Shown: positions 42 through 52,000 of the stretch, piece by piece
How the letters are laid out: every line of letters begins with the position of its first letter
Position numbering within the stretch: position 1 is the first letter of the stretch
Assembly (NCBI GenBank): GCA_963576785.1
Contig: OY756145.1
Coordinates: forward strand, 1,364,001 to 1,428,000
Origin: Chlorophyllum brunneum
Lineage: Eukaryota; Basidiomycota; Agaricomycetes; Agaricales; Agaricaceae
DNA: 64,000 nucleotides
Direction: 5' to 3'
Notes under the pieces: model-generated
The model's database searches: none
What the model was told of the DNA's origin: nothing
The model's input: the letters and a program-made list of their open reading frames with translations, nothing else
Program-made: the position numbers and the translations under genes

Positions 42-920
42 CTACTTGTTGTCTTGTTCTTTGTGTAAGGCATTGATAAGTTGACATTTGGTAGGACCAA
101 TCATTGGGGTTCCTGATTTGTGTCGACATCCAATCCAAAAGGGGGTATGGTCTTGGCCTCCTCTGAAGAGAGCTATGGTGCGTCCTTTGAATGTAGCAGT
201 ATCGTTTGTTTCGGCTGTGATGAGGTTATGTATTACCTCTTCCCAGTAGTTTTCTTCGAACTGTCCTCCATCTTTGAGTGTAAGATAAGATGGGGGTGGG
301 TTGAATATCATTGGTTTGGGTGGTGGGTCCATATCAGGCAGTTGTATAAGGAGGTGGTCTACTTCATCTTGCATGTCCAGTTCCATTAGATAGTCTGGGA
401 CTGATTTGTCGATTCCCTCCATTCCTTCATCTAACCAGTCCTGTTCATCATCTTTGTGGTAGGGTGGCTTGTCGGGTAAGGTAGTGGGGGTATATGAGTT
501 GAGATCCATTAGTTTCCGTGCAAGTCTATAGGTGGGATTGTCACTTGAGTCAGTAAGGTGATTGAGTCTTTCGCCTGTCATGATTAAGGCACTTTGGATG
601 CATTTCTTTGCATCAGAGTGCACTAATATGTTGAGGTCGGTGGCTGCTTTGTCTAATAACTCCTTCATGAGTTTATGTTTCCCAGTTGACATGGCGGTGG
701 GAAGGGCTCTGGTAGTAGTGATGAGTAGAATGTGGCTCAGGGCTTTGGCTTGGATTTGGAGATTATTGATGGCATGGGCAATGTATGTGAGTCCTTTGGT
801 TGTGGCAGTATAGTGTTCAATTTGATCTTTGGTGGACTGGGCATCGAGGAGATTGTTAAGTTCTTGTTCGAATTCTGTATTGTTGGCTGGGAAGGGGGTG
901 GGTTTGCGTTCAGTGTGCAT
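42..920 (-). CDS. gypsy-1 ORF3, accessory protein downstream of pol (292 aa)
   Basis: This ORF sits between the end of pol and the 3' LTR, the position of env in errantiviruses, but it has no signal peptide or membrane helix. I recognise no known family. It is uninterrupted for 292 codons although gag and pol of the same copy are broken. It aligns with ORF3 of gypsy-2 and gypsy-3 mainly in the last 90 residues, where a pattern H-x-P-x-W-I-G-x-R, then P-x-I-G, K and A-L is kept. The N-terminal two thirds are hardly alignable. The start is the first ATG after the short Cys/His ORF, the same place as in the other copies. The middle is acidic and proline-rich. Confidence 0.6.
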   Translation of the reverse strand: MHTERKPTPFPANNTEFEQELNNLLDAQSTKDQIEHYTATTKGLTYIAHAINNLQIQAKALSHILLITTTRALPTAMSTGKHKLMKELLDKAATDLNILVHSDAKKCIQSALIMTGERLNHLTDSSDNPTYRLARKLMDLNSYTPTTLPDKPPYHKDDEQDWLDEGMEGIDKSVPDYLMELDMQDEVDHLLIQLPDMDPPPKPMIFNPPPSYLTLKDGGQFEENYWEEVIHNLITAETNDTATFKGRTIALFRGGQDHTPFWIGCRHKSGTPMIGPTKCQLINALHKEQDNK

Positions 921-23393: not shown

Positions 23394-23687
23394 TGTTATG
23401 ACCTTAGTCTCTGACTCAGGTTGCAAGCCTTTGGGTAAAGGAGAGGAAGTAGAGAAAGGAAGAAGGGATGATACGATTGGTAAAGTGTAAGGAATACATC
23501 AAGTATTACTACACTTTATATACTAGTGGTGGTGGCTAATAATAAGGGAGACAAGTAAACGAGTCAGATAGGAGGCATAGCCTTTAGGGATGAAACAGGG
23601 GATGGAACGAGAAGTGAAACAAGTATGAGGATACACGAGGTAACGGGCGCAAGATAGGAATGAACGGTCTATCTATAGTTCGTAACA
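23394..23687 (-). repeat. gypsy-2 3' LTR (294 bp)
   Basis: TG...CA ends, TATA box and the start-of-transcript signal are as in the 5' LTR. The polypurine tract lies just inside it at about 23690-23702 (acctccctttc on the plus strand). Confidence 0.96.
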
Positions 23688-23796
23688 ATACCTCCCTTTC
23701 AAGCTTCATGTCCTCATGATGCATATTACTGTAAAGGTCCTTTGTAAAATAAAGTATGCGGAATTTTCAGAGAAGGTAGGAAAACGTGCTGAGCAT

Positions 23797-24633
23797 TTAC
23801 TCGTTCATAGGTACGGCCGCTCCCAGAGCTCTGGCCAAGTCCTTCTTGTTTCCTCCGATGAGAGGTGCCTTGTCAACACGTCGTAAGCCGATCCAGAGGG
23901 GCACATGTGGTGGTCCTTCTTTGAATAGGAAGTGGGTGTGATTATTGTACGTGGTGTTGTCGTTGGTGTGGTTGCTTAAGAGTTTATGCACTATGCTCCT
24001 CCAGTATTCATTGTCCTTTTCGCCTTCCGATTTCAACGTGTTGTATCCCTGCGGTGGGTGGAAGGTCATGGGTGTGATGGGGGGTACTACCGTGGTGAGG
24101 ATGGTTTGGAGATGGGCTACTTCTTCTTCGATGTCGGGGTGAAGTAGTTGATCGGCGGCTGTTGCTTCTTGTGTCTTTTGTTCGCATTTATGACAGATGT
24201 GATGTTGGATGGGAAACGGGTCGTTACTAATGAGTAGTCAGTTAACGATATGGTGGGAGAGATTGTCTGTGCTCCTTGCTTCGTACGTATTGAGCTGTTC
24301 GGCTAGGGCTACGAGGATGCTATGCATCCGAGCTCGCATATTGGAGATGACGATAAGTTGCAGGTCGTTGTTGATCTCGTATAGGTGTCTCTCCAATTGG
24401 TCTCTCCTTCCTTCGTCGATGATAAATTGGTTGGGTCTTGGAGGGGCGTCGGATAGGGTATCCATTATTTTAGATGCGCCTTCTTGGGTTGCTTTCATTG
24501 CTGCACCCAGTAGTATCATGGTGTTGACTAGGGTCTCTCCTTCCATGAGTTCCTCATGGCTGGTTCTTTCTGGGACGAGTTCATCGAATTCTTTGAGGTA
24601 GGGGTATGGAGTAAGTTGGCGTTCGGCAGGCAT
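23797..24633 (-). pseudogene. gypsy-2 ORF3, accessory protein, one in-frame TGA
   Basis: About 95 percent identical to the intact 278-aa ORF3 of gypsy-3. The only break is a TGA at 24238, where gypsy-3 has CGA. An H-x-C-x2-C pattern and an acidic segment follow the break. Function unknown; no membrane helix or signal peptide. Confidence 0.8.
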
Positions 24634-24730
24634 GGTATGTTATGAAGATAGTTGGCAAAGTCAAGGGTGAAGTGGATACCACAAGTGATGCATTGAGTGT
24701 AGTGGTTACTTGGAATGCAGGGTCTGTTGT

Positions 24731-27700
24731 TCATAATTGCTGTTTTTTACCTCCCCTTTTTATAGGTTTCGTCCTCGAAATCTTGCTCATAAAATCTTGT
24801 ATTGCTTCCTTGGCATTTTCCAGATTTGCTTCATCTTCCCATGTATCTTCTTCGGACGTATATCCTTTCCAGTGTACTAGGTACTGTTTTCGTCTTCCCT
24901 TTGTGCAGTGTCCTCGGACTTCATCTACTTCGTAGTGTTCCTCATCGTTGATTATCTCGGGGATTGGTGGTGGTGGGGTGCGCTGACTGTCATACTCGGG
25001 TTTGTGATAGGGGGAGAGGAGTCTGCTGTTAAACACGTCATGTATCGCCCATGTTTCAGGTAGCTCCAGTCGGTAGCTTGTTTCACCTATTTTCTCTTTT
25101 ACCCAGAATGGTCCGTATCTCCTGTGATCAAGTTTTTTTGTTGGCCTTGTTGTCCTAATATTGTCGGCTTCAAGCCAAACTTGGTCTCCTGCCTCGTACT
25201 CGTGTTCTGGTTTTGTGCTATTCCGTTTCTCCATTTGCGCCTGGCTCTGTTGTAGCATCTCAATCGTTTTTTGGCGCATGTCTTGTAACTCTTGTATTCG
25301 TTCCGTGATTGCAGGTGCCTTGGATGTGTTTGAGATATCCCCTTTCCATGGATGTCGTCCATATACTATCTGGAACGGTGAATGTCCTGTGGCGCTATGT
25401 GTTTTGTCGTTATACTGGAATTCTGCTGTGCTGAGCCATTTTTTCCAGTTGTCCTGCGCATGGTTGATTACGTTTCTGAGGTATGCTTCGACCTCCTGGT
25501 TGATGCGCTCTGTCTGACTGTCTGTTTGTGGATGGTATGCTGTGGATAGGTTACATTGGGTGCCGGTTGCTCTGCAAAGTTCTGCCATGAATTTTGATGC
25601 AAATTGTGGACCTCTGTCACTGATGATCCTGCGGGGTATCCCATGTTGTCTCCATATATCATTCCGATAAATGTCCCCTAACTCCTCGGATGATAGGGTG
25701 GTGTTAACTGCACGTAGTCTGATCATTTTGCTGAAACAATCAACGATGACAAGTATCACATCATATCCCTCTGATTCTGGTAGTAGTCCTATCATGTCGA
25801 TTGATATTTCCTCCCATGGTCCGATGGGTGTCGGTAGTGGATGGAGATGTGTGGTAGGTCGTGTCTGGAGTATCTTGTTTCGCTGACATGTGTCGCATCC
25901 CTTGATGTATCGTTTAACATCGTTGTGCATCTGTGGCCACCAATATGTCCTTTTGAGGAGTTCGATCATTCTGTGCTGTCCCGGGTGTCCTACATCTGTT
26001 CTGTCGTGGTGTTGTTGGAGTATTTCTTGGCGTAACTCGGCGTTTGGTGGTACATATATTCTTCCTTCGAACATAGGCAATCCATCAGTTTCCCATATCT
26101 CCTCTGGTCGTTTCTCCTTTTGTTTTAGCCACTGTGTTTCTCTCCTTTGCTCCTTTCGTAATCGGTGTTTCAGGTCCTCTTCTCCCGATATTTCCCAAAT
26201 TTGTCTGATCTCGGTGATAGTGTTGTTGAATAAGTGGTCGGGTAATAGCGTGATATCTGTGTTATCTCTGGTGGTGTCCTTTTTTGCTAGTCTTGATAGC
26301 ACGTCTGCTTTTGTGTTTGTCTTTCCGGGTATGTGTTTTAGTGTGTAGTGATATTCTTGTAGTTCCAGTTGCCATCTTGCCTGTCGTCCTGTGAGTTGTT
26401 GTGGTTTCCTGAAGTATTCTAAGTTTTTGTGGTCCGTCCATATCTCGAATGGTTCATTGGCATCGAGTAGGTACTGTCTCCACGTTTTGACTGCTTCTTG
26501 GATTGCTAGTAGTTCTTTGTCGTAGATTTGGTAGTTTCGCTCTGCCGGTGTCATTGTTCTTGAGTGAAAGGCGATTGGGTGCCACTGATCATTCTGGTTT
26601 TGTGACAACACCGCTCCTACTCCATATCCCGACGCATCCACTTCTACCCTGTATTGTCCTTTGTCTTGAGGCATTGCTAGTACTGGTTCGCTCGTGATCT
26701 TTTCCTTGATCTTCTCAAACACCTGTTGTTGTCATTCTGACCATGACCATTGCGCATCTTTCTTCTTCAGCTCATGTAGGGGTGTTGCTATGTTACTGAA
26801 GTCTTGTATGAATCGTCGGTAGAAGTTTGTGAAACCCAGGAATTTTTCGACGTCTTTTACGGATTTGGGTGTCGGCCATTCTCTTACTGCTTTCACCTTC
26901 TCTTCCTCCATTTTGACGCTGCCTTGTCCTACTATAAAGCCCAATATGGGTATTTCCTTCGCATCAAACACACATTTTGATCGTTTGAAATAGAGTTGGT
27001 GCTTGGCTGCAATGTCTAGGAACCACGTTGTTCTTTTCTCGAGTTCTTCCTGTGTGGTTCCTGGAATGACAAAATTGTCCATGTAGTTGACAAGCGTTCC
27101 CTCATGTAACATTTCCCGAAATACTGTGTTCATCATCCTCTGAAAGGTTGCTGGTGAATTGCTCATCCCGAAGAACATGACCGTAGGTTCGAATAATCCG
27201 CTGTTTGTTACAAATGCTGCCTTCCATTCATCCCCTTCTCTGATCCTGACATTGTTATATCCCCAAATGATATCGAGCTTGTTGAATACCTTCGCATCCT
27301 TTAACCAGTCTAGGACTTTGCCTATGAGTGGCAGTGGCGTCTTGTCCTTGATGGTGTGTTCATTCAGCTTTTTGTAATCCTGTACTAGGCGTTTTGTTCC
27401 GTCCTTCTTTGGTATGAAGAAGCATGGGGTGGCGTAGGGGGATTGTGATGGTCTGATTCGTCCTGAGGCAAGGTTTTTGTCGAGGAATTTCTGTAGTTCC
27501 TGCTTCTCTGTTATTGTCATTGGGTAGACCTTGGACTGTAGTACTGGAGGTGCATCTTCGGACAGGTTTATCTCGTGGTCCCATACCATGTGCTCGGGTA
27601 GTTCTTCTTGTTGAATAGGTGGGTGTATCATTGGAGGTATGGTGGTAGATCTTCATCATTCGTCCGGTCTGCCTTTTTCTCTTCAATGTGTTCCTTGACT

Positions 27701-28202
27701 GTCCGTATTTTCTCGTTGAACTGTATGTCGCTATGTGATATTTTGCAATCATCTGGGCATCTGGTGAATCGTATGATGTGATTGTTCCAATCGATCTCCG
27801 GGTTATGCTTGACCAGCCAGTCGTGTCCGAGATATAAGTCTGCACTTTCCAATTGTGTTACTAGAGCGTCGATTTGTTCCGTATGGTTGCCGTTGTTTAA
27901 TACCAGTTGTGCTTTGTCTGTTATTTCTCCTTTTTTGTTTTCTGTTCCATCGGCATTGATTACTCTGATCGGGGTTTCCAGGGGTTTAGTCAAAATCTGT
28001 TCTTCGTCTACTGTTCATTGTGCTATGCACGTATGGGTGCATCCGGAGTCTACAAGGGTTGTAATTTGTCTGCGTCCTTTTCTTGTCTGGATTGTTGAGT
28101 CGAGGAGAAGTTTGCGCGTGGAGTTTCGTTTCTGGGGGATCATGTATCGTCTATTGTGGGCTAAAACAGAAACTCTAGATTTATTGGCTCGCGGGTTTGC
28201 GC
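24731..28202 (-). pseudogene. gypsy-2 pol (PR-RT-RNaseH-IN-chromodomain), few lesions
   Basis: The frame is -1 relative to gag and is open across the gag stop. Protease has D-S-G-C-T-H near 28,050, followed by a TGA. A TGA and a 10-nt deletion near 27,630 break the protease-RT link. RT (27,480-26,950) carries Y-M-D-N instead of YMDD near 27,080. A TGA lies near 26,730. The last 663 codons are open: RNase H; the integrase HHCC finger (C-D-T-C near 25,880); DDE residues (I-D-M-I, S-D-R-G-P-Q-F, E-R-I-N-Q-E); and a chromodomain (L-V-H-W-K-G-Y near 24,870). Confidence 0.93.
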
Positions 28203-29447
28203 CTACTCGGAGCCTTTGACAAAATCCTCTTTCTCCTCCATTTCTTGTTCATCTTCCTTGTTGATCTCTCTGATATGCACTTTCTTGGGTGCCCAGCAGT
28301 TCTTCGAGATGTGGCCCTGTTTGCCACAATTGTAACACGTTATCTTGGTGTATGTGACTTTCGTCTTCTTCCTGCAGTATTTGGTGATATGGCCGTAGAG
28401 GTTGCAGTTGTAGCACCTCGGTTTCCCATTCTGATCGGTGTCTGCTTTTTGTCTTCCTATCTCCATGGGTTGTCCTCTACCTCCATAAGTAACTCCGGTG
28501 GTGGTTCTGACATCTCCTCGGGTGATGTCCGTTGCTTCATACCCTTGTCCTACTGCGAGGATTGTAGTTTTCCATTTGGTGTATGTCGTTGGGACAGAGG
28601 TTGTTGGGTAGCCTACTATGGTTCGAATGATGTCTGCTCGGGTGTGGTGTTTGAGGAGGAATATTGCGTGGGTGTCATCTGTCCCCGCTTGGGCTTTCAA
28701 TGCCTCGAATTCTATTAAAAAATCTGCTGTGTTCCTCTTCCCTTGTTTGAACGTCTCAATTTCTCCTTCTACTATGGCTTTTCTATTTCCCAAGGAAAAT
28801 GTGGCTTCTATTTCCTTTGTAAAGTCATCCCAATCTGGTGTTTTCTTGTTCTGGATGGCTTGGAGCTGCGTGTTGGCATAAGGGCCTGCTAGCCTCCCTT
28901 TCATTCTTGCCAAAATTGCTACTATCTTCTGTTTTTCTTCGTCCATTTTGTTGAACATCAACCATAAGGATATGGCTCTCCACCAATCATCAAATCTGGT
29001 TCTATCTCCATTGAAATATCCTGGCTCCGGGGCTAGGTTCTTTGGGATATTGACTTCTTTGGTCATTTCTGGTTCTGTTTCTGGTTCGCTGTGTTTGTTT
29101 CCGTGGGTCTCGGCGATTTCTATATCGGCTGTGGGGTCGGCGACTTCTGTGTCGATTTCTTCTTCAGATGGGGCTGGTTCCTCGTCTGTGTTGTGTTCGG
29201 ATTCTTTCTCGTAGGTCTCAGCGATATCTATATCGGATGTGTTCTCAGCGACTTCTATGTCAAATTCGGTTTCAAATAGAGCTGTACTCTCGTCTACGCT
29301 GTGTTCAGATTTCTGCCGTTTAAGGCCTTCAGGGATTTCTGATTCTGTTGATCGTTTAGATCCTGTTGCCACGGGTGAACCCTGGATGTCTGTTGGTCTC
29401 GGAGCTCTGTGTCTTTTCGGTGTTCTCAATGAGCTACTGCTGCTCAT
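28203..29447 (-). CDS. gypsy-2 gag, 414 aa, intact
   Basis: The N-terminal 130 residues are Ser/Glu/Asp-rich with repeated I-A-E-T and E-V-A units. A capsid-like helical region (W-W-R-A-I-S-L-W, F-S-L-G-N-R-K-A-I) covers residues about 140-290. Two zinc knuckles C-Y-N-C-x4-H-x4-C lie at about residues 340-385. The stop (TAG) lies inside the open pol frame, 10 nt after that frame opens. Structural protein of the virus-like particle by family. Start: first ATG after the primer-binding site. Confidence 0.93.
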   Translation of the reverse strand: MSSSSSLRTPKRHRAPRPTDIQGSPVATGSKRSTESEIPEGLKRQKSEHSVDESTALFETEFDIEVAENTSDIDIAETYEKESEHNTDEEPAPSEEEIDTEVADPTADIEIAETHGNKHSEPETEPEMTKEVNIPKNLAPEPGYFNGDRTRFDDWWRAISLWLMFNKMDEEKQKIVAILARMKGRLAGPYANTQLQAIQNKKTPDWDDFTKEIEATFSLGNRKAIVEGEIETFKQGKRNTADFLIEFEALKAQAGTDDTHAIFLLKHHTRADIIRTIVGYPTTSVPTTYTKWKTTILAVGQGYEATDITRGDVRTTTGVTYGGRGQPMEIGRQKADTDQNGKPRCYNCNLYGHITKYCRKKTKVTYTKITCYNCGKQGHISKNCWAPKKVHIREINKEDEQEMEEKEDFVKGSE

Positions 29448-29540
29448 ATACTGTCGTCCTGGTCGGAGGCTATTATTCCAAGCCTAGCTATGAATAGTGG
29501 CACCTCTCTTGCAAGGTGAGTCGAATGACACTTTACCAAA

Positions 29541-29834
29541 TGTTACAACCTTAGTCTCTGACTCAGGTTGCAAGCCTTTGGATAAAGGAGAGGAAGTAGA
29601 GAAAGGAAGAAGGGATGATATGATTGGTAAAGTGTAAGGAATACATCAAGTATTACTACACTTTATATACTAGTGGTAGTGGCTAATAATAAGGGAGACA
29701 AGTAAACGAGTCAGATAGGAGGCATAGCCTTTAGGGATGAAACAGGGGATGGAACGAGAAGTGAAACAAGTATGAGGGTACACGAGGTAACGGGCGCAAG
29801 ATAGGAATGAACGGTCTATCTATAGTTCGTAACA
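29541..29834 (-). repeat. gypsy-2 5' LTR (294 bp)
   Basis: Pairs with 23394-23687; about 98 percent identical, differences all transitions. The primer-binding site acactttaccaa (plus-strand view) is at 29528-29539, one base inside the LTR. Confidence 0.96.
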
Positions 29835-33590: not shown

Positions 33591-34127
33591 TAGATCTTCT
33601 TCTCCTGAAATATCCCAGATTCATTGGATTTCCATGGTTGTGTTATTGAATAGATGGTTAGGTAATAAGGTGATGTTGGTATTGTCTCAGGTGGTATTAG
33701 TTTTTGTCAATCTTGATAATACATGTGCTTTTGTGTTTGTCTTCCTAGGAATGTGTTTCAGCATGTAATAGTATTCTTATAGCTCTATCTGCCACCTTGC
33801 TTGTTGTTCTATGAGCTGTTGTGGTTTTTGGAAGTATTCCAGGTTCTTGTGGTTGGTCCAAATTTCAAAAGGTTTGTCAGTATCAAGTAGATATTGTCTC
33901 TATATTTTTTTAATTGCTTCTTAGATAGCTGGTAGTTCTTTGTTGTAGATTTGGTAATTGTGTTCTGTGGGTATCATTGTTCTTGAGTGGAAGGCAATTG
34001 GATGCCAGTGTTCCTTCTGTCTCTGTGATAATACTGCTCCTATTCCATAGCCTGATGTATCTATCTCTACCCTGTATTATCTCTTGTCCTATGATATTGC
34101 TAGTACTAGTTTGCTTGTAACCTTTTC
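33591..34127 (-). mobile_element. gypsy-4, left part (RNase H end of pol), split by gypsy-3
   Basis: It aligns with gypsy-1 2461-2990. The left end is abrupt inside pol, so integrase, ORF3 and the 3' LTR are missing. It ends at ttttc (34123-34127), the target duplication of gypsy-3. Confidence 0.85.
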
Positions 34128-34421
34128 TGTTATGAACTATAGATAGACCGTTCATTCCTATCTTGTGCCCATTACCTCGTGTATCCTCATACTTGTCTCA
34201 CTTCTCGTTTCACTCCCTGTTTCACCCCTAAAGGCTATACCTCTCATCTGACTCGTTTACTCATCTCCCTTATTATTAGCCACCACCACTAGTATATAAA
34301 GTGTAGTAATACTTGATGTATTCCTTACACTTTACCAATCGTATCATCCCTTCTTCCTTTCTCTGCTTCCTTTCCTTTACCCAAAGGCTTGCAACCTGAG
34401 TCAGAGACTAAGATCGTAACA
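34128..34421 (+). repeat. gypsy-3 5' LTR (294 bp)
   Basis: Begins tgttatgaac and ends gtaaca. It holds the promoter and the transcript start region described separately. Confidence 0.96.
34293..34338 (+). promoter_or_regulatory. LTR TATA box and predicted transcript start
   Basis: TATATAAA at 34293-34300 is followed 34 bp later by acactttaccaa (34327-34338). This 12-mer is the exact complement of the primer-binding site just after the LTR, so it is the expected 5' end of the genomic RNA if self-priming is used. The same arrangement is present in gypsy-1 and gypsy-2. Confidence 0.65.
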
Positions 34422-34422
34422 T

Positions 34423-34434
34423 TTGGTAAAGTGT
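34423..34434 (+). other. Self-priming primer-binding site
   Basis: ttggtaaagtgt begins two bases after the LTR end and pairs perfectly over 12 nt with the LTR sequence at 34327-34338. No match to a tRNA 3' end (a site starting TGG followed by tRNA acceptor complement) is needed. In Tf1 of fission yeast and related chromoviruses the first 11 nt of the RNA prime minus-strand synthesis in this way. Confidence 0.75.
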
Positions 34435-34514: not shown

Positions 34515-35759
34515 ATGAGCAGCAGTAGCTCATTGAGAACACCGAAAAGACACAGAGCTCCGAGACCAACAGACATCCAGGGTTCACCCATAGCAACAGG
34601 ATCTAAACAATCAACAGAATCAGAAATCCCTGAAGGCCTTAAACGGCAGAAATCCGAACACAGCATAGACCAGAATACAGCTCTATTTGAAACCAAATTC
34701 GACATAGAAGTCGCCGAGAACACATCCGATATAGATATCGCCGAGACCTACGAGGAAGAATCTGAACACAGCACAGACGAAGAACCAGCTCCATTTGAAG
34801 AAGAAATCGACACAGAAGTCGCCGACGCTACAGCCGATATAGAAATCACCGAGACCCACGGAAACAAACACAGCGAACCAGAGACAGAACCAGAGATGCC
34901 AGAAGAAATCAACATCTCAAAGAACCTAGCCCCAGAGCCAGGATATTTCAATGGAGATAGAACCAGATTTGACGATTGGTGGAGAGCAATATCCTTATGG
35001 TTAATGTTCAACAAGATAGATGAAGAAGAACAGAAGATAGTGGCAATTTTGGCGAGAATGAAAGGGGGGCTAGTAGGCCCTTATGCCAACACGCAGCTAC
35101 AAGCCATCCAGAACAAGAAAACACCAGATTGGGATGACTTTACGAAGGAAATAGAGGCCACATTTTCCTTGGGAAATAGGAAAGCCATAGCAGAAGGAGA
35201 AATCGAGACGTTCAAACAAGGGAAGAAGAACACGGCAGACTTCTTAATAGAATTCGAGGCATTGAAAGCCCAAGCGGGGACAGACGACACCCACGCAATA
35301 TTCCTCCTCAAACGCCACACCAGAGCAGACATCATTCGAACCATAGTAGGCTACCCAATAACCTCCATCCCAACAACATACACCAAGTGGAAAACTACAA
35401 TCCTCGCAGTAGGACAAGGGTATGAAGCAACGGACATCACCCGAGGAGATGTCAGAACCACCACCGGAGTTACTTATGGAGGTAGAGGACAACCCATGGA
35501 GATAGGAAGACAAAGGGCAGACACTGATCAAAACAGAAAACTGAGGTGCTACAACTGCAACCTCTATGGGCATATCGCCAAATACTGTAGGAAGAAGACG
35601 AAAGTCACATACACCAAGACAACATGTTACAATTGTGGCAAACAAGGCCACATCTCGAAGAACTGCCGGGCGCCCAAGAAAGTGCATATCAGAGAGATCA
35701 ACGAGGACGATGAACAAGAAATGGAGGAGAAAGAGGATTTTGTTGAAGGCTCCGAGTAG
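34515..35759 (+). CDS. gypsy-3 gag, 414 aa, intact
   Basis: Same length and layout as the gypsy-2 gag: acidic Ser/Glu-rich N-terminus, capsid-like helical block from about residue 140, and two CCHC knuckles (C-Y-N-C-N-L-Y-G-H and C-Y-N-C-G-K-Q-G-H) before an acidic tail. The TAG stop at 35757-35759 lies within the pol frame, which opens at 35747 after a TGA. The start is the first ATG after the primer-binding site. Confidence 0.94.
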   Translation: MSSSSSLRTPKRHRAPRPTDIQGSPIATGSKQSTESEIPEGLKRQKSEHSIDQNTALFETKFDIEVAENTSDIDIAETYEEESEHSTDEEPAPFEEEIDTEVADATADIEITETHGNKHSEPETEPEMPEEINISKNLAPEPGYFNGDRTRFDDWWRAISLWLMFNKIDEEEQKIVAILARMKGGLVGPYANTQLQAIQNKKTPDWDDFTKEIEATFSLGNRKAIAEGEIETFKQGKKNTADFLIEFEALKAQAGTDDTHAIFLLKRHTRADIIRTIVGYPITSIPTTYTKWKTTILAVGQGYEATDITRGDVRTTTGVTYGGRGQPMEIGRQRADTDQNRKLRCYNCNLYGHIAKYCRKKTKVTYTKTTCYNCGKQGHISKNCRAPKKVHIREINEDDEQEMEEKEDFVEGSE

Positions 35760-38700
35760 GCGCAAACCTGCGAGCCAATAAATCTAGAGTTTCTGTTTTA
35801 TCCCACAATAGACAATACATAATCCCCCAGAAACGAAACTCTACATGCGAACTTCTCCTCAACTCAACAATCCAGACAAGAAAAGGACGTAGATCAATTA
35901 CAACCCTTGTAGACTCCGGATGCACCCATACGTGCATAGCACAATGAACGGTAGACGAAGAACAGATTCTGACTAAACCCCTGGAAACCCCGATCAGAGT
36001 AATCAATGCCGATGGAACAGAAAACAAAAAAGGAGAAATAACAGACAAAGCACAACTGGTATTAAACAACGGCAACCATACGGAACAAATCGACGCTCTA
36101 GTAACACAATTGGAAAGTGCAGACTTATATCTCGGACACGACTGGCTGGTCAAGCATAACCCGGAGATCGATTGGAACAATCACATCATACGATTCACCA
36201 GATGCCCAGATGATTGCAAAATATCACATAGCGACATACAGTTCAACGAGAAAATATGGACAGTCAAGGAACACATTGAAGAGAAAAAGGCAGACCGGAC
36301 GAATGATGAAGATCTACCACCATACCTCCAATGATACACCCACCTATTCAACAAGAAGAACTACCCGAGCACATGGTATGGGACCACGAGATAAACCTGT
36401 CTGAAGATGCACCTCCAGTACTACAGTCCAAGGTCTACCCAATGACAATAGCGGAGAAACAGGAACTACAGAAGTTCCTTGACGAGAACCTCGCCTCAGG
36501 ACGAATCAGACCATCACAATCCCCCTACGCCACCCCATGTTTCTTTATACCAAAAAAGGACGGAACAAAACACCTGGTACAGGATTACAAAAAGCTGAAT
36601 GAACACACCATCAAGGATAAAACGCCACTGCCACTCATAGGCAAAGTTCTAGACCAATTAAAGGATGCGAAGGTGTTCAACAAGCTTGATATCATTTGGG
36701 GATATAACAACGTCAGGATCAGAGAAGGGGATGAATGAAGGCAGCGTTTGTAACAAACAGCAGATTATTCGAACCTACAGTCATGTTCTTCGGGATGAGC
36801 AATTCACCGGCAACCTTTCAGAGGATGATGAACACGGTATTTCGAGAAATGTTACATGAGGGAATGCTCGTCAACTACATGGACGATTTTGTCATTCCAG
36901 GAACCATACAGGAAGAACTTGAGGAAAGAACAACGCAGTTCTTAGACATTGCAGCCAAACACCAGCTTTACTTCAAGTGGTCAAAATGTGTGTTCGACGC
37001 AAAAGAAATACCCATACTGGGCTTTATAGTGGGACAAGGCAGCATTAAAATGGAGAAAGAGAAGGTGAAAGCAGTAAGAGAATGGCCAACACCCAAATCT
37101 GTGAAAGACGTCGAAAAATTCCTGGGTTTTGCAAACTTCTACCGACAATTCATACAAGACTTCAGTAACATAGCAACACCCCTACATGAGCTGAAGAAAA
37201 AAGATGCGCAATGGTCATGGTCAGAACAACAACAACAGGCATTTGAGAAAATCAAGGAAAAGGTCACGAGCAAACCAGTACTAGCAATGCCTCAGGACAA
37301 AGGACAATACAGGGTAGAAGTAGATGCATCAGGATACGGAGTAGGAGCGGTATTATCACAAAATCAGAATGACCAATGGCACCCAATCACCTTTCACTCG
37401 AGAACAATGACACCGGCAGAACGAAACTACCAAATCTACGACAAGGAACTACTAGCAATCCGGGAAGCAATCAAAACGTGGAGACAATACCTACTTGATG
37501 CCAACAAACCATTCGAGATATGGATGGACCACAAGAACTTAGAATAATTCAGGAAACCACAACAACTCACAGGACGACAGGCAAGATGGCAACTGGAATT
37601 ACAGGAATATCGCTACACACTAAAACATATACCCGGGAAGACGAACATGAAAGCAGATGTGCTATCAAGACTAGCAAAAATGGACACAACCAGAGACAAC
37701 ACAGATATCATGCTATTACCCGACTACCTATTTGATAACACTATCACCGAGATCAGACAAATTTGGGAAATATCGGGAGAAGAAGATCTGAAACACCGAT
37801 TACGAAAGGAGCAAAGAAGAGAAACACAGTGGCTAAGAGAAAAGGAGAAACGACCAGAGGAGACATGGGAAATAGATGGGTTGCCTATGTTCGAAGGAAG
37901 AATATATGCACCACCAAATGCCGAGTTACACCAAGAAATACTCCAACAACACCATGACAGAACAGACGTAGGACACCCAGGACAGCACAGAATGATCGAA
38001 CTCCTCAAAAGGACATATTGGTGGCCACAGATGTGCAATGATGTTAAATAATACATCAAGGGATGCAACACATGTCAGCAAAACAAAATACTCTGGACAC
38101 GACCTACCACACATCTCCATCCACTACCGATACCCACCGGACCATGGGAAGAGATATCAATTGATATGATAGAACCACTACCAGAATCAGAAGGATATGA
38201 TGCGATACTTGTCATTGTTGATCGTTTCAGCAAAATGATCAGACTACGCGCAGTTAACACCACCCTATCATCCGAGGAGTTAGGGGACATTTATCGGAAT
38301 GATATATGGAGACAACATGGGATACCCCGCAGGATCATCAGTGACAGAGGTCCACAATTTGCATCAAAATTCATGGCAGAACTTTGCAGAGCAACCGGCA
38401 CCCAATGTAACCTATCCACAGCATACCATCCACAAACAGACAGTCAGACAGAGCGCATCAACCAGGAGGTCGAAGCATACCTCAGAAACGTAATCAACCA
38501 TGCGCAGGACAACTGGAAAAAATGGCTCAGCACAGCAGAATTCCAGTATAACGACAAAACACATAGCGCCACAGGACATTCACCGTTCCAGATAGTATAT
38601 GGACAACATCCATGGAAAGGGGATATCTCAAACACATCCAAGGCACCTGCAATCACGGAACGAATACAAGAGTTACAAGACATGCGCCAAAAAACGATTG

Positions 38701-39230
38701 AGATACTACAACAGAGCCAGGCGCAAATGGAGAAACGGAATAGCACAAAACCAGAACACGAGTACGAGGCAGGAGACCAAGTTTGGCTTGAAGCCGACAA
38801 TATTAGGACAACAAGACCGACAAAAAAACTTGATCACAGGAGATACGGACCATTCCGAGTAAAAGAAAAAATAGGTGAAACAAGCTACTGACTGGAGCTA
38901 CCTGAAACATGGGCGATACACGATGTGTTCAACAGCAGACTCCTCTCCCCCTATCACAAACCTAAGTATGACAGTCAGCATACTCCGCCACCACCGATCC
39001 CCGAAATAGTCAATGATGAGGAACACTATGAGGTAGATGAAGTCCGAGGACACCGCACAAGGGGAAAACAAAAACAGTACCTAGTACACTGGAAAGGATA
39101 TACGTCCGAAGAAGATACATGGGAAGATGAAGCAAATCTGGAAAATGCCAAGGAAGCAATACAAGAGTTTATGAGCAAGATTTCGAGGACGAAACCTATA
39201 AAAAGGGGAGGTAAAAAGCAGCAATTATGA
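35747..39230 (+). pseudogene. gypsy-3 pol (PR-RT-RNaseH-IN-chromodomain), several lesions
   Basis: The frame is -1 to gag, and D-S-G-C-T-H of the protease lies near 35,915. It shares with gypsy-2 a TGA after the protease motif, a TGA near 36,333 and a 10-nt deletion shortly after. Its own lesions are a 1-nt deletion near 36,737 and stops at 37545, 38049 and 38889. RT has an intact Y-M-D-D near 36,883. RNase H starts near 37,317; the integrase finger C-D-T-C would be near 38,070; DDE motifs follow to 38,480; the chromodomain is at 39,030-39,190. The chromodomain in this family directs integration to marked chromatin. Confidence 0.93.
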
Positions 39231-39433
39231 ACAACAGACCTTGCATTCCAAGCAACCACTACACTCAACACATCACTCACTGTATCCACTTCACCCTTGA
39301 CTTTGCTAACTATTTTCATAACACACCATGCCTGCCGAATGCCAACTTACTCCATACCCCTACCTCAAAGAATTCGACAAACTCGTCCCGAAAAGAACTA
39401 GCCATGAAGAGCTCGTGGAAGGAGAAACCCTAG
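39227..39433 (+). CDS. Short Cys/His ORF overlapping the pol stop (68 codons)
   Basis: Its ATG overlaps the pol stop as ATGA (39227-39230). The first 32 codons are similar in gypsy-1 (from 1021), gypsy-2 (from 24734) and gypsy-3: M-N-N-x-P-C, H-Y-T, I-H-x-T-L-x-F-A, and H-N-x-P-C. Cys and His positions recur. The part beyond overlaps ORF3 in another frame. It may be a separate peptide, a leader that positions ribosomes for ORF3, or a 5' exon of ORF3. Confidence 0.45.
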   Translation: MNNRPCIPSNHYTQHITHCIHFTLDFANYFHNTPCLPNANLLHTPTSKNSTNSSRKELAMKSSWKEKP

Positions 39434-40164
39434 TCAACACCATGATACTATTAGGCACAGCAATGAAAGCAACCCAAGAAGGCGCATCTAAAATAATGGA
39501 CATCTTATCCGATGCCACCCTGAGACTCAACCAGTTCATCATCGATAAAGGAAGGAGAGACCAATTGGAGAGACACTTATACAAAATCAACGATGACCTG
39601 CAACTCATTGTCATCTCCAATATGCGAGCTCGGATGCACAGCATCCTCGTAGCCCTAGCCAAACAACTCAATACATACGAGTCAAGGAGTACAGACAATC
39701 TCTTCCACCATATCGTTAACCGACTACTCGTTAGTAACGACCCGTTTCCTATCCAACATCACATCTGTCATAAATGCAAACAAAAGACACAAGAAGCAAC
39801 AGCCGCCGATCAACTACTTCACCCCGACATCGAAGAAGAAGTAGCCCATCTCCAAACCATCCTCACCACGGTAGTACCCCCCATCACACCCATGACCTTC
39901 CACCCACCGCAGGGATACAACACGTTGAAATCGGAAGGCGAAAAGGACAATGAATACTGGAGGAGCATAGTGCATAAACTCTTAAGCAACCACACCAACG
40001 ACAACACCACGTACAATAATCACACCCACTTCCTATTCAAAGAAGGACCACCACATGTGCCCCTCTGGATCGGCTTACGACGTGTTGACAAGGCACCTCT
40101 CATCGGAGGAAACAAGAAGGACTTGGCCAGAGCTCTGGGAGTGGCCGTACCTATGAACGAGTAA
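39328..40164 (+). CDS. gypsy-3 ORF3, accessory protein downstream of pol (278 aa), intact
   Basis: It fills the space between pol and the 3' LTR. Predicted mostly helical in the first 150 residues (repeated L, E, R and K), with an H-x-C-x2-C motif near residue 147, an acidic segment, and a C-terminal block with P-L-W-I-G-L-R and P-L-I-G-G. No signal peptide, membrane helix, envelope or known enzyme motif is visible, so it is not an env gene. It is open although pol of the same copy has at least six lesions. I do not recognise the family. Confidence 0.7.
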   Translation: MPAECQLTPYPYLKEFDKLVPKRTSHEELVEGETLVNTMILLGTAMKATQEGASKIMDILSDATLRLNQFIIDKGRRDQLERHLYKINDDLQLIVISNMRARMHSILVALAKQLNTYESRSTDNLFHHIVNRLLVSNDPFPIQHHICHKCKQKTQEATAADQLLHPDIEEEVAHLQTILTTVVPPITPMTFHPPQGYNTLKSEGEKDNEYWRSIVHKLLSNHTNDNTTYNNHTHFLFKEGPPHVPLWIGLRRVDKAPLIGGNKKDLARALGVAVPMNE

Positions 40165-40273: not shown

Positions 40274-40567
40274 TGTTACGAACTATAGATAGACCGTTCA
40301 TTCCTATCTTGCGCCCGTTACCTCGTGTACCCTCATACTTGTTTCACTTCTCGTTTCACTCCCTGTTTCACCCCTAAAGGCTATACCTCTCATCTGACTC
40401 GTTTACTCATCTCCCTTATTATTAGCCGCCACCACTAGTATATAAAGTGTAGTAATACTTGATGTATTCCTTACACTTTACCAATCGTATTATCCCTTCT
40501 TCCTTTCTCTGCTTCCTTTCCTTTACCCAAAGGCTTGCAACCTGAGTCAGAGACTAAGGTTGTAACA
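40274..40567 (+). repeat. gypsy-3 3' LTR (294 bp)
   Basis: Pairs with 34128-34421, about 97 percent identical by eye, differences all C/T or G/A. Confidence 0.96.
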
Positions 40568-43500
40568 TTTTCCTTAATTCTTTTGAAGGCTTGTTTTTGT
40601 CATTCTGTCCACATCCATTGAGTATCCTTCTTCTTCAGCTCATGTAAGAGGGCTGCTATATTACTGAAGTTGGTAGAAGTTTGCAAAGCTTAGGAATTTT
40701 TTGATGTCCTTCAGGGATTTAGGTGTTGGCTATTCCTTTACAACTTTTACTTTCTTCTCCTCTATTTTAATACTATCTTGTCCAACTACAAATCCTAGTA
40801 TTGGTATCTCTTTTGCATCAAATAAGTATTTTGAACTTTTGAAGTATAACTGGTATTTGGCTCCAATGTCAAGAAACTGCTTTGTTTTCTTCTCAAGTTC
40901 TTTTTGCATAGTTTTGGGGATAACAAAGTCATCCATATAGTTGACAACTGCTCCTTCATATAATATTTCTCTGTGTTCATCATCCTCTGGAACATTGTAG
41001 GCAAGTTGCTTATTCTGAAAAACATGACTATTGGTTTGAATAATCTGTTGTTCATTACAAATGCTGCTTTCCATTCATTGCCTTCTCTTATTTGGACATT
41101 GTTATATTCCCAAATAATATCAAGTTTGTTGAAGACCCTTACATCTTTGAGTCAATCAATGACTTTACTTATGAGTGGAAGTGGCATTTTGTCCTTGATT
41201 ATATGTTTATTCAGCTTTTTGTAGTCTTGTACCAGTTGCTTTGTTCCATCTTTCTTGGGTATAAAGAAGCATGGGGTGGCATAGGGGGATTGTAATGGTC
41301 AAATTCATCCTGAGGCAATATTTTTGTTAAGGAATTTCTGTAGTTCTTGTTTTTCCATTATCATCATGGAATAGACTTTGGACTGTAGTACTGGAGGTAC
41401 ATTTTCTGACAAGTTTATCTTGTGGTCCTATATCATGTGTTTGGGCAGTTTGTCAAAGGTTTTTTTGTTGAATAGGTGCATGTATTACTGTAGATATGTC
41501 AGTAGGTCTTCTGAGTTTGTCTGGTCTGCTTTTTTCTTCTCTATGTATTCCTTTACTGTGCATATTCTCTTATTAAACCATATGTCATTGTGCTATGTGG
41601 TACAATCCTTTGGACATCTTGTAAAACATATTATATTGTTTGTCCAATTGATTTTAGGATTGTGTTTGACAAGCCAGTCATATCTGAGGTATAAGTCTGT
41701 GCTTTCTAGTTGTATTACCATTGCTTTTATTTTTACCATGTGTTTTCCATTGTTTAATATCAGGTGTACCATATCTGTTATTTCTCCTTTCTTGTTTTCA
41801 GTTCCATTAGTGTTAATTACTCTTATTAGGATTTCAAAGGATCTGGTTGGGATTTGTTCTTCTTCTACTATCTTTTGGACTATGTATGTGTAGGTACATC
41901 TGGAGTCTACTAATGTGGTGATTTGTTTGGGTCCCTTTGTTGTTTTGATAGTTGAGTCTAGGAGAAGTTTGTGCATCAAGTTTTATTTCTATAGAATTAT
42001 GTATTATGTATTGTAAAGTAAAACAGGAACTCTAGGTTTATTAGCTTGCAGGTTTTTTTTTTTTTTTTTTTGTTCATTTTCCTCAGTAATCTTCCTGATG
42101 TGTACTTTCTTTGGTGCTTTGCAATTCTTCAAAATGTGGCCTTGTTTGCCATCATTATAGCATATTAATTTGGTATATGTAATCTTTGTTTCCTTACAGC
42201 AGTATTTTGCAATATACCTATATAGATTGTAGTTAAAACATCCTAGTTTGCTGTTTTTGTCAGTGTCTGCCTTGTGTCTTCCAATCTCCATTAATTATCC
42301 TCTACCTCCATATGTGACTCTGGTAGTAGTTCTAACATCTCCATAAGTGATGTCTGTAGTTTATATCCTTGTCCTACTATGAGGATTATGGTTTTCTATT
42401 TCTCATATATGGTTGGAATTGAGACTACTGGATAGCCCACAATGGTTCAAATGATGTCTGCTCTGGTATGTCATCTGAGAAGGAAAATAGCATATGTATT
42501 GTCTGTTTCTACTTGTACTTTTAATGCTTCAAATTCAATTATGAAATTAGTGGTATTTCTCTTTCCCTGTTTGAACAACTTGATTTTCCCTTCTACTATT
42601 GCCTTCCTATTCCCCAATGAGAATGTGGCTACTATTTTTTTAGCAAAGTTATCAAATGTTGGTGTTTTCTTGTTCTGAATAACTGACAATTTGGTATTTG
42701 CATAGGGTCCTATATTATTATCATGCTAGTTATAAATTTGAATCCAGTTGCACAAATATTCATGATTAGTCAGGTGCCCTTCTACCAGTCCTCCTCTCAT
42801 CCTTGCTAATACTCCAATTATCTTTTGTTCATTGTCATCAATCTTGTTGAAAAGTGTCTATAGGGATATTGCTCTCTACCAATTGTCAAACTTAGTTCTA
42901 TCTCCATTAAAGTATCCTGGTTCTGGGGCTAAATTCTTTGGAAAGTTAACTTCATCAGCTATTTCTGATTCTGTTTCAGATTCTCTGTGTTTATTCTTGT
43001 GTATCTCAGCAATTTCTACATTGGATTGGTTCTTGGCAACTTCTATATTGGATAGGGCTTTAGCAATTTCTATATCAGATATTTCAGATTCATAGGTCTC
43101 AGCAATTTCTATATCAGACAGGATTTCAGTGACTTCTATGTTGGATGTGGTCTTAGGAACTTCAGTGTTGAATAAGGTCTTGAAGAGTACTGTATCTTTG
43201 TCTATACTGTATTCAGATTTCTGCCATTTAAGGCCTTCAGGGATTTCTGGTTCTGTTCATTGTTTGGATCCAGTAGTTACAGATAATTCCTGGATGTCTG
43301 TTAATCTCAGAGCTCTGGGTCTTCTTGGTATTCTTGATAAGCTGTTGCTACTTATATACTGTCATTCTGGTTAGAGACTATTATTCTAAGCCTAGCTACA
43401 AATAGTGGCACCTCTCTTGCAAGATGAGTCAAATAACACTTTACCAAATGTTATGACCTTAGTTTATGACTCAGGTTGCAAGTCTTTGGATAAAAACAAG

Positions 43501-49024: not shown

Positions 49025-52000
49025 ATGTCCAGAGGTTACAAGGCTTTCGGTGACAAGGAAAAACCATCCATACTCATACCACAATCTCAGTCTCCTTCGA
49101 TCACCTCTAAACCAGACGACCTGACCCAAAGTCCCGTCACACCTATCACTCCTAAGACCCCTGCCGATGAAGCTCTTGAATTTTTTTCTTCTACTCTCAC
49201 TCAGGGGGCAACCCCGATCACTGTTTACGAACTGCGCCTCGATCCTGACGGCGGTCCGAACAAAGACCGCCAGGTAAGTCCTTCGATTCCGGACTTTCTT
49301 CCTTCGTTGATAACGATCCCTCTCAGTACATACGTTTACCCCCAGCATACACCCCCTATATCCTGAGAGTCTCGTTCGCTGCAGGAACACCTGCAGCTAA
49401 CAATGGTGTTTTTAAAACTAATTTCCCTTTGGATGGAGGATTCTTCGGCAGGGACCGCTATACCCAACGGACGTACGTAAGACCTGGAGCTCATACCTCG
49501 CTCGTATATTAATCACAGACCCAGACTCCCAACCGAATATTCCAAACCTATACAAGTGGATCTACCCATATCACATGCTGGTGCTTTCGTTTATTGGGTT
49601 GAATATGATGGTGAAGATGGCCAACGCGTGAAGAGTCGGCACGGGTATTTCAACGTCGATCCCAGTCTTAGAATCAAGAATCGTACCCCTATTCTCGACA
49701 ACAAACTCCAAGTTTTACCCCCAGGAAAAGGCGCTGTTCTCAAGGACGAATATGTGAACCTTCCACTCGACGGTTTATCCATCTTGACCGTAGTATCGAA
49801 ATGGATGGGACCGATGGACGGATGGCGAGGTCATTTCTCCGAAGCAAAAGAGAGGGGATACACCATGTTACACTATACACCCTTGCAAGAACGAGGAGAA
49901 AGTAATAGTCCTTACTCAATCCGCGATCAGATGCGATACGACCCGGGCTTGTTCGATGATTCCTTAGACGATAAAAGTGGGAGGAAGAAGGCGGAGGAGA
50001 TTCTCAAGATTGCGCGGGAAGAATATGGGCTACTCAGTCTGACGGACGTCGTCCTCAATCACACCGCAAACAACAGTCCTTGGTTGGTAGAACATCCTGA
50101 AGCTGGTATGTGCTATTATTTCACAGCCTTACTATTCATTCGAACTTCCCCCAATCCGTAGGCTATAGTCCAGCAAACACACCGCATCTTACTCCAGCCC
50201 TTGAGCTGGACTCGGCTTTGATTAACTTTTCTGCCAACCTTGGTTCTCGAGGACTACCATCAATCGTCAACTCCGAAGAAGACTTGAACCGCCTCGTCTC
50301 GGCATTTGAACAGGATCTCAAGAGTCTCAATCTCTGGCAATACTATGTACTCGAACCGTCACGCGAGAGGAGAGCTATTCTAGCTTCATTGGGGTCTGGA
50401 GAGATCACCCCTTGGGTAGGGCCAGATGTCAACCAGAAAACCGTCGCGGAGTTGGCGGAAATACTGCTTTCTGAGCAAAAGATCGTAGGGCTGGGATTAC
50501 TGGCGTCACGATTCGGAGTTCACGTCGAGAGCAGTGTTAGTGCGGGTCTCATCAAAATTGCTTTCGCAGATGTTCAAGACGTCAATGCCCTTGCCGAAGC
50601 ATGGGTCAGAGTAGTCGACGTCGTCAATGTCTCTTTGTACAAGGAGTGGGAAGACGACATGCGGGCCGCTCTGAATAATATCCGGAACAGATTAAAGTAT
50701 ACACGGCTGGACGCCCAAGGTCCGAAACTAGGAGAAGTATCCAAACAGTGCGTATACCCCGAGTGTCACACCACGTCAATAACGGTATATATTCCAGAAA
50801 CCCACTCGTGGAGGCGTATTTCACTCGTCTTCTCCCTTCATCCGAAGCAGATCCGCTAACATACTCTCTGGCGAACAACGGATGGATATGGAATGCGGAT
50901 CCCCTTCAAAACTTCGCCCTCCTCCCCTCTAAAGCTTATCTGCGCCGTGAGGTCATAGTATGGGGTGACTGCGTTAAACTGCGGTACGGGGATTCACCAA
51001 AGGCCAATCCCTGGTTATGGGATTACATGAGGAAATATGTGACGTCTCTCGCAGCAACATTTGATGGGTTCAGAATTGACAACTGTCACTCCACACCTCT
51101 TGAAGTAGGAACGCATATGCTTGATGCAGCAAGGGAGACCCGGCCAGATCTCTACATTTGCGCCGAATTATTTACCGGGAATGAGGAAACTGACTTGTTG
51201 TTTGTGAGAGAGCTCGGTGTTAATAGTTTGATACGGGAGAGCTATAACGGTTGGGATCCCAAAGAGTTTTCACGTCTACTGTATAGACACGGGGTTGGGA
51301 AGCCCATTGGTTCTATGGACGGTGTCTGTATGACGAGTATGGAGGAGATCGCAAGTCCGACCGGTAAAGGCCCTATTCGACAAGCGCTTGTTACACCTCT
51401 TAACGGCTCCACGCCTCACGCATTACTCTACGATCTCACACATGACAACGAATCTCCATTAGACAGGCGATCCGCCGAGGATTCTCTCTCGACAGGAGCA
51501 TTGGCGACATTCAGCTATAGTGCAATTGGAAGCGTGAAGGGATTCGATGACCTGTATCCCAAGCTCTTGAACTTGGTACACGAGAATAGGAAATACCGTA
51601 TCACTGGCACAGGAGAGGGCAGCGGTATCGCAAAAGCGAAACGTCTATTGAATGAGTTGCACCTGGAAATGGTATTAGGTTGTTACGAGGAGGGCCATGT
51701 CCATCAGGAGAACGACGTACGTGTGTTACTGTGTATTACTATAATGTGGTGAAGAATATTGTTACTGACCTGCCTTTATGCAGTATATTGTCCTACACCG
51801 TGTACAGCCATCTACCCAGAAAGGGTATATACTAGTCGCCCATACTGCCTTCTCAAAAGGTGCTAAGGATCGAGGATTCAGTAAGTCATTAAGCATCTTA
51901 CAATTACGCCTCACGCTCCTCTGTGACTAGTCAATCCGATCAAACTTCGCCGGACTCGAGCGAAATTTATCATGGGAGCTAGCCTCAATATCACGTCGTA

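What the first reader, a model, noticed from the sequence alone, without database searches (positions are those of the whole stretch)
39328..40164. ORF3: an unrecognised, fast-diverging protein gene in the env position of a self-priming chromodomain gypsy element
All three copies that reach this far carry an ORF of 278-292 codons between pol and the 3' LTR (920-42, 24633-23797, 39328-40164). It is open in gypsy-1 and gypsy-3 although pol there is full of stops. It is not an envelope protein: no signal peptide or membrane helix. Between gypsy-1 and gypsy-3 gag is about 75 percent alike by eye, but ORF3 is alignable only in its last 90 residues. Tf1/sushi-type elements are normally gag-pol only. 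A rapidly changing accessory gene could antagonise host silencing or act in particle or integration control.
Basis: partly seen in the sequence, partly recalled or inferred. Interest (0 to 1): 0.75.

Follow-up and report, generated by a model that had tools for sequence, protein, structure and literature searches.

The report
Third gene of gypsy retrotransposon families
Two large families of gypsy jumping genes in this genome carry a real third protein gene after pol, of a kind with no recognised relatives; natural selection has kept it working, and it seems to have been exchanged as a block between element families rather than to have evolved unusually fast.

Summary
The ORF is real. It lies between pol and the 3' LTR of a self-priming chromodomain Ty3/gypsy element, at the stated coordinates, and recurs in well over 100 genomic copies each of family A (gypsy-2, gypsy-3) and family B (gypsy-1). 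Inherited (shared, non-CpG) variants show purifying selection: omega 0.12 [0.06-0.20] in A and 0.26 [0.18-0.37] in B, in the range of gag and pol. CpG C>T decay is about neutral, and shifted frames give omega above 1.

"Fast-diverging" is misleading. A and B ORF3 align end to end (27% identity, E 1e-28). DNA identity is 79% in pol and 73% in the spacer, 43-51% in ORF3, poor in the short 3' UTR, and 66-90% from the PPT on. Four-fold transversions are about twice as frequent in ORF3 as in gag and pol, while within A its synonymous diversity equals theirs. An ancient replacement of the ORF3 module by recombination fits best, though a burst of selection is not excluded.

No database, profile or fold match gives a function. 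It is not envelope-like. I favour an accessory nucleic-acid or particle factor; anti-silencing is possible but untested.

The parts
34128..34421 (+). 5' LTR of gypsy-3 (family A), TG...CA; 5-bp target duplication TTTTC at 34123-34127 and 40568-40572
34327..34338 (+). ACACTTTACCAA, presumed RNA 5' end below the TATA box, self-priming partner
   Evidence: 12-nt exact complement
34423..34434 (+). TTGGTAAAGTGT, self-priming PBS directly after the 5' LTR
34515..35759 (+). gag (414 aa; Retrotrans_gag, zinc knuckle)
35948..39230 (+). decayed pol: protease region (by match to gypsy-2, no Pfam hit), RT, RNase H, H2C2, integrase core, SH3_Tf2-1, chromodomain; several stops and frame changes in this copy
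39027..39176 (+). chromodomain (PF00385, E 4.5e-18)
39231..39327 (+). spacer pol-ORF3, 73% identical between families A and B
39328..40164 (+). ORF3 of gypsy-3, open, 278 aa
40261..40270 (+). polypurine tract before the 3' LTR
   Evidence: sequence; block with the LTR start 90% identical A-B
40274..40567 (+). 3' LTR of gypsy-3
23797..24633 (-). ORF3 of gypsy-2 (family A), with an internal stop at codon 132
23394..29834 (-). gypsy-2, complete family A element, 5-bp duplication GGCAT
42..920 (-). ORF3 of gypsy-1 (family B), open, 292 aa
1021..5615 (-). gag-pol of gypsy-1 (family B), decayed

Best explanation
ORF3 is a genuine third gene of two related chromodomain gypsy families. SHOWN: it is present in well over a hundred copies of each family, is under purifying selection in the range of gag and pol in each, and is mostly intact in a less decayed subfamily whose gag and pol are also open. 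INFERRED, about 0.7 likely: the A and B versions are homologous modules that split earlier than the gag-pol bodies they now sit in. One was replaced as a block, probably by template switching during reverse transcription, between the ORF3 start and the PPT. INFERRED, about 0.4 likely: the protein is an accessory factor of the element's own cycle. It would be a mostly helical, possibly self-associating N-terminal two thirds followed by a small conserved alpha/beta C-terminal domain, acting in trans on the element's RNA, DNA or gag particle (export, packaging or protection), as CERV does for Cer1. The confidence below is for gene plus module exchange, not for the biochemical role.
For: Genome-wide recurrence. 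Omega of shared non-CpG variants: A ORF3 0.12 [0.06-0.20], A RT-RH 0.13 [0.07-0.20], A gag 0.22 [0.15-0.31], A IN-CD 0.25 [0.17-0.35], B ORF3 0.26 [0.18-0.37]; shared CpG C>T 0.97-1.22 in these five sets; ORF3 in shifted frames 2.2-4.6. B pol end 0.34, on 8 copies. Similar synonymous diversity within A (shared non-CpG synonymous variants per codon): ORF3 56/278, gag 77/414, RT-RH 94/436, IN-CD 81/393, so no mutational hot spot. A-B DNA identity, 5 of 21 A by 5 of 30 B copies: pol 0.79, spacer 0.73, ORF3 codons 16-183 0.43, ORF3 184-278 0.51, PPT block 0.90, U3 0.66, R-U5 0.84. Four-fold transversions at identical residues (gypsy-2 against gypsy-1): ORF3 18/38, gag 21/105, RT 17/66, RH-IN-CD 42/177; Fisher p 0.0025, 0.032, 0.005. 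Less decayed subfamily: 19 of 19 gag rows with a 435-aa frame, 20 of 22 pol rows at 91% identity and 40 of 49 ORF3 rows with a 287-aa frame have no stop (hand counts, capped lists).
Against: No present-day A/B mosaic among 57 held stretches, 51 distinct copies, so any exchange is old and not caught in the act. Four-fold counts are small and inflated by chance-aligned residues: C-terminal part alone 8/16, p 0.023, 0.074, 0.034 against gag, RT, RH-IN-CD; counting all four-fold differences, ORF3 24/38 differs from gag (p 0.013) and RH-IN-CD (p 0.019) but not from RT (33/66, p 0.22). Four-fold identity of gag and pol ranges 45-63%, so ORF3's 43-51% is only partly below it. The borders are blurred: the first 15 codons are 66% identical and the 3' UTR before the PPT is poorly alignable (0.53, 58% gaps). 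Singleton non-CpG variants give omega 0.45 (A) and 0.55 (B), closer to neutral. The role has no direct support: no Pfam, NCBIfam, PHROG or PDB sequence match of weight; both models are poor (pLDDT 39 and 50); A is near neutral in charge and B acidic, neither with an NLS-like run, which does not favour nucleic-acid binding.
Confidence: 0.65

Rival explanations
1. Arms-race gene: ORF3 stayed in place in both families and diverged by bursts of positive selection, for instance as an anti-silencing protein against host methylation.
For: A-B protein identity is 27-29% against 67-83% for pieces of gag and pol. The elements suffer heavy C>T change, with neutral CpG C>T decay, as expected under a host defence (inferred). 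U3 carries GTTTCAC-type repeats, more in A than in B; VANC targets often form tandem repeats (abstract of PMC5735166). All-difference four-fold counts do not separate ORF3 from RT (p 0.22).
Against: Omega is 0.12-0.26 within both families, with point estimates below 0.4 in every third of the protein (highest 0.36 [0.19-0.65]). Four-fold transversions are also more frequent in ORF3, which positive selection on the protein would not do.
Confidence: 0.22
2. Envelope-like gene derived from an errantivirus-type ancestor, now used for cell-to-cell or particle functions.
For: Position between pol and the 3' LTR, sense strand.
Against: No signal peptide or membrane segment by hydropathy; no Pfam match.
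Confidence: 0.03
3. Captured host gene or non-coding relic, open by chance and not used.
For: No homologue of known function; ORF3 decays in old copies like the other genes.
Against: Frame-specific purifying selection in two families with neutral CpG decay as internal control; mostly intact in less decayed copies.
Confidence: 0.03

Closest known systems
Additional ORFs (aORF-3S) between pol and 3' LTR of plant LTR retrotransposons (PMC7264820, first of three parts read)
   Same: Position, sense strand, present in many copies, unknown role.
   Different: Some of those have membrane segments and are called env-like; ours has none, and it sits in a chromodomain gypsy element of a probable fungus.
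'add. ORF' of unknown function in fungal/spikemoss gypsy elements (PMC2864245, section 5 and passages read; figure not held)
   Same: Extra ORF in fungal gypsy elements of a chromodomain survey; the legend names it without function.
   Different: Which elements carry it and its sequence could not be seen, so identity with ORF3 is untested.
ORF3s of bdelloid rotifer LTR retrotransposons (PMC5408684, abstract, section 3.6 and discussion read)
   Same: Third gene after pol; ORF types shared between different elements, template switching proposed.
   Different: Those are env-like, GDSL or DEDDy types, and their intragenomic variation was reported as mostly neutral; ours matches no known domain and is under clear purifying selection.
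CERV of Cer1 in C. elegans (PMC10309623, abstract and passages read)
   Same: Retrotransposon-specific accessory protein without sequence similarity to known retroviral proteins; works-like model for ORF3.
   Different: CERV is 517 aa from a spliced five-exon mRNA whose exons 1-3 share the gag frame; ORF3 is one open frame after pol. Homology was not tested.
VANC anti-silencing proteins of Arabidopsis VANDAL elements (PMC5735166, abstract read)
   Same: Accessory TE protein with related versions of different target spectrum; short U3 repeats that differ between families here.
   Different: VANDALs are DNA transposons (recalled); no sequence relation was tested and there is no demethylation evidence here.

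Membership tests
Chromodomain Ty3/gypsy (chromovirus) | Order RT-RNase H-integrase | tested here: met
Chromodomain Ty3/gypsy (chromovirus) | Chromodomain at the integrase C-terminus | tested here: met
   PF00385, E 4.5e-18
Tf1/sushi self-priming group | PBS complementary to the RNA 5' end | tested here: met
   12 nt in gypsy-2 and gypsy-3, same strings in gypsy-1; 14 of 21 A elements keep the exact 13-nt string
Tf1/sushi self-priming group | Single gag-pol ORF (recalled for Tf1) | tested here: not met
   Where the junction can be read, gag and pol lie in different frames with about 45 nt overlap
Env-bearing (errantivirus/retrovirus-like) element | Signal peptide and transmembrane segment in ORF3 | tested here: not met
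   hydropathy scan only
Rotifer-type enzymatic ORF3 (GDSL, DEDDy) | Recognisable catalytic domain | tested here: not met
   no Pfam family for ORF3 at E up to 10
CERV-like export factor | Nuclear, needed for genomic RNA export | not testable with these tools
   needs experiment
VANC-like anti-silencing factor | Sequence-specific binding and loss of methylation on own family | not testable with these tools
   needs experiment
Any family with a solved fold | Structural match of ORF3 | tested here: inconclusive

The most novel reading that the evidence does not exclude
ORF3 is an exchangeable host-interaction cassette of non-envelope type: elements trade whole ORF3 modules, with their matching non-coding targets in the 3' UTR/U3, by template switching. 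The protein would act sequence-specifically on its own family (anti-silencing or RNA export), giving each family a private system, an LTR-element counterpart of VANC or CERV.
Probability: 0.2. Interest if true: 0.8.

Novelty: new variant of a known kind. Interest (0 to 1): 0.5.

Why it matters
Extra genes of LTR retrotransposons are often of unknown use or called env-like. Here the element's own copies provide a test: neutral CpG decay as a control, and clear purifying selection on inherited variants. If the module-exchange reading holds, retrotransposons swap accessory genes as retroviruses swap env (recalled), which would explain why such genes look orphan and 'fast-evolving'. Two diverged versions in one genome, each in many copies, make target specificity directly testable.

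Tried and rejected
Relatives: three searches of 5.8 billion proteins gave only one further ORF3, 90% identical to P0001, on an unnamed 2,975-bp contig. Pfam gave nothing; NCBIfam and PHROGs only chance-level rows (best E 0.099 and 0.047); PDB sequences best E 0.16, a designed protein. Origin from gag: hhalign probability 0.5%, rejected. Structure: two AlphaFold2 jobs on three sequences, too poor to interpret; Foldseek and VIA rows are not used as evidence, and the C-terminal domain was barely tested.

Current A/B mosaics: one call in 57 stretches (L019), explained by an A copy lying beside a B copy. A third ORF3 lineage: ten elements with a family-C-like gag were probed near the expected ORF3 place; three have a B-like ORF3 (L062, L068 and, after extension, L060/L069) and seven show none there, without telling truncation or insertion from absence. 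What fraction of family A or B copies lacks ORF3 was not measured. An overlapping ORF from the ATG that overlaps the pol stop has no codon-position support (7, 4, 9 changes; p 0.39). The less decayed subfamily (gag 90-91%, pol 91%, ORF3 mostly 87-90% identical to the window proteins) was set aside as a rate test because post-insertion decay of the window copies contributes to those differences. Papers seen as passages only and not used: PMC3248453, PMC5006619.

Dropped rows: a PR-RT piece was read in the wrong frame and is not used. Omega used 18 of 19 gag, 18 of 20 RT-RH, 19 of 21 IN-CD and 21 of 21 ORF3 copies of A, and 30 of 30 B ORF3; B pol end 8 of 10 kept of 30. In one search one of six random ORF3 pairs gave no alignment. 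B ORF3 loci are the 30 best of 40 listed matches to gypsy-1, and A copies 21 of the 40 best listed, so openness rates are not a random sample. Failed scripts: strand error, redone; tblastn option, redone.

Full report
What is there. The window lies on contig 7 of a 38.9-Mb, 14-contig genome. gypsy-3 is a complete element: LTRs 34128-34421 and 40274-40567, 5-bp duplication TTTTC, gag with a zinc knuckle, RT, RNase H, integrase, an SH3_Tf2-1 domain and a chromodomain. The sequence after the 5' LTR is complementary over 12 nt to the presumed RNA start, the self-priming anatomy. gypsy-2 belongs to the same family (A); gypsy-1 belongs to a second family (B). Where the junction can be read, gag and pol lie in different frames with about 45 nt overlap. 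ORF3 follows the chromodomain after a 97-nt spacer.

Is ORF3 a gene? The genome holds at least 139 scored family A matches, 90 of 139 without an in-frame stop (hand count), and 135 family B match rows; both lists are capped. Because old copies decay, openness of single copies says little: 8 of 21 A and 12 of 30 B ORF3s are open, like gag (8 of 19). The informative test separates changes inherited through active elements from decay after insertion. I counted variants shared by at least two copies and split CpG C>T (decay) from the rest, with opportunities matched by mutation class. Shared CpG C>T changes give omega 0.97-1.22 in the five sets (0.81 for the B pol end), as neutral decay should. 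Non-CpG shared variants give 0.12 [0.06-0.20] for A ORF3, 0.13 for RT-RNase H, 0.22 for gag, 0.25 for integrase-chromodomain, and 0.26 [0.18-0.37] for B ORF3; 0.34 for the B pol end on 8 copies. Intervals of ORF3 and gag overlap. Read in either shifted frame, ORF3 gives 2.2-4.6. Singletons, which mix inherited and post-insertion changes, give 0.45 (A) and 0.55 (B) outside CpG. So ORF3 is a protein gene whose sequence mattered while both families spread. A less decayed subfamily of A has gag, pol and ORF3 mostly open: 19 of 19 gag rows with a 435-aa frame, 20 of 22 pol rows at 91% and 40 of 49 ORF3 rows with a 287-aa frame show no stop, 15 of these ORF3 rows with one and the same score. Six copies can be followed through all three lists; ORF3 and gag are open in six of six, the pol piece in five.

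Is it fast-evolving? Between A and B, gag is 72-76%, the RT-to-chromodomain part 78-80% (shorter RT pieces 67-83%, depending on the copy) and ORF3 27-29% identical. Along the DNA, identity is 0.79 in pol and 0.73 in the spacer, 0.66 in the first 15 ORF3 codons (a quarter gaps), then 0.43 (codons 16-183) and 0.51 (184-278). The short 3' UTR is poorly alignable (0.53, 58% gaps); identity recovers to 0.90 at the PPT, 0.66 in U3 and 0.84 in R-U5 (5 of 21 A by 5 of 30 B copies). ORF3 is thus less similar than U3, and its larger part lies at or below the four-fold identity of gag and pol (45-63%), so relaxed constraint alone hardly explains it. At codons for identical residues, four-fold transversions are 18 of 38 in ORF3 against 21/105, 17/66 and 42/177 in gag, RT and RH-IN-CD (p 0.0025, 0.032, 0.005). 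Counting all four-fold differences, ORF3 (24/38) differs from gag (p 0.013) and RH-IN-CD (p 0.019) but not from RT (p 0.22). Within family A, synonymous diversity of ORF3 is like that of the other genes (0.20 per codon against 0.19-0.22), so there is no mutational hot spot. The simplest reading is that the two ORF3 versions split before the gag-pol bodies did and one was swapped in as a module. The four-fold counts are small and partly inflated by chance alignment (C-terminal part alone 8 of 16, p 0.02-0.07), and no mosaic element survives among 57 held stretches, 51 distinct copies. A burst of positive selection remains a rival at about 0.22.

What does it do? No library recognises it. It has no signal peptide or membrane segment by hydropathy. 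Both predicted models are poor; both draw a helical N-terminal two thirds at low confidence, and the B model gives 43-78 per block to most of an alpha/beta C-terminal domain, the part best conserved between A and B. I favour an accessory factor acting on the element's RNA, DNA or particle, like CERV of Cer1 in working though not shown related (PMC10309623, abstract and passages). Anti-silencing is attractive because these elements suffer heavy C>T change and because VANC proteins of Arabidopsis elements show how such factors evolve (PMC5735166, abstract), but it is untested.

Novelty. Extra ORFs after pol are known in plants (PMC7264820, part 1 of 3 read), rotifers (PMC5408684) and, as an unexplained 'add. 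ORF', in a survey of mostly fungal elements (PMC2864245, legend read, figure not seen). Nine answered paper searches of open-licence papers (eight on LTR elements; one on VANC) brought up, in titles and abstract starts, no description of this protein family. The new points are the demonstrated selection, unlike the mostly neutral pattern reported for rotifer ORF3s, and the evidence for block exchange. I therefore call it a new variant of a known kind.

Noticed in passing
window about 43755-40573 and 34122-33591, minus strand: A third, AT-enriched and decayed relative (family C; GC 0.34-0.41 in these 2-kb bins) was split by the insertion of gypsy-3; its LTR keeps the TATATAAAG box and its leader the GGTAAAGTG string, and its 3' half with any ORF3 is missing.
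   Followed up: partly
window 39227-39433 (family A) and the same place in family B: The pol stop overlaps a start codon (ATGA), opening an overlapping frame of typically 68 codons in A and 94 in B; ATGA is kept in 20 of 21 A and 24 of 28 B copies (2 of 30 B not placed), but codon-position counts give no support for coding. The spacer itself is more similar between A and B (73%) than U3 (66%).
   Followed up: partly
window 34207-34229 and 40341-40371: GTTTCAC-type 12-bp repeats in U3: two or three per U3 in 21 of 21 A copies, one or two in the 27 of 30 B copies where a TATA box was found.
   Followed up: partly
window 34651-34860: A 108-bp tandem repeat inside gag; copies L051 and L047 carry 27 and 54 extra bases in gag.
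   Followed up: no
L069/L060 (contig C10) against window about 31.9-30.9 kb, minus strand: A family B copy has about 1.1 kb of unrelated sequence inside its chromodomain that resembles, by eye, an unclassified stretch in this window.
   Followed up: no
window 17751-21336, minus strand: LINE-like element: a reverse transcriptase domain and a weak endonuclease match (below Pfam's cut-off).
   Followed up: no
window 50679-53000, plus strand: Host gene for glycogen debranching enzyme, split into several frames as if by introns.
   Followed up: no
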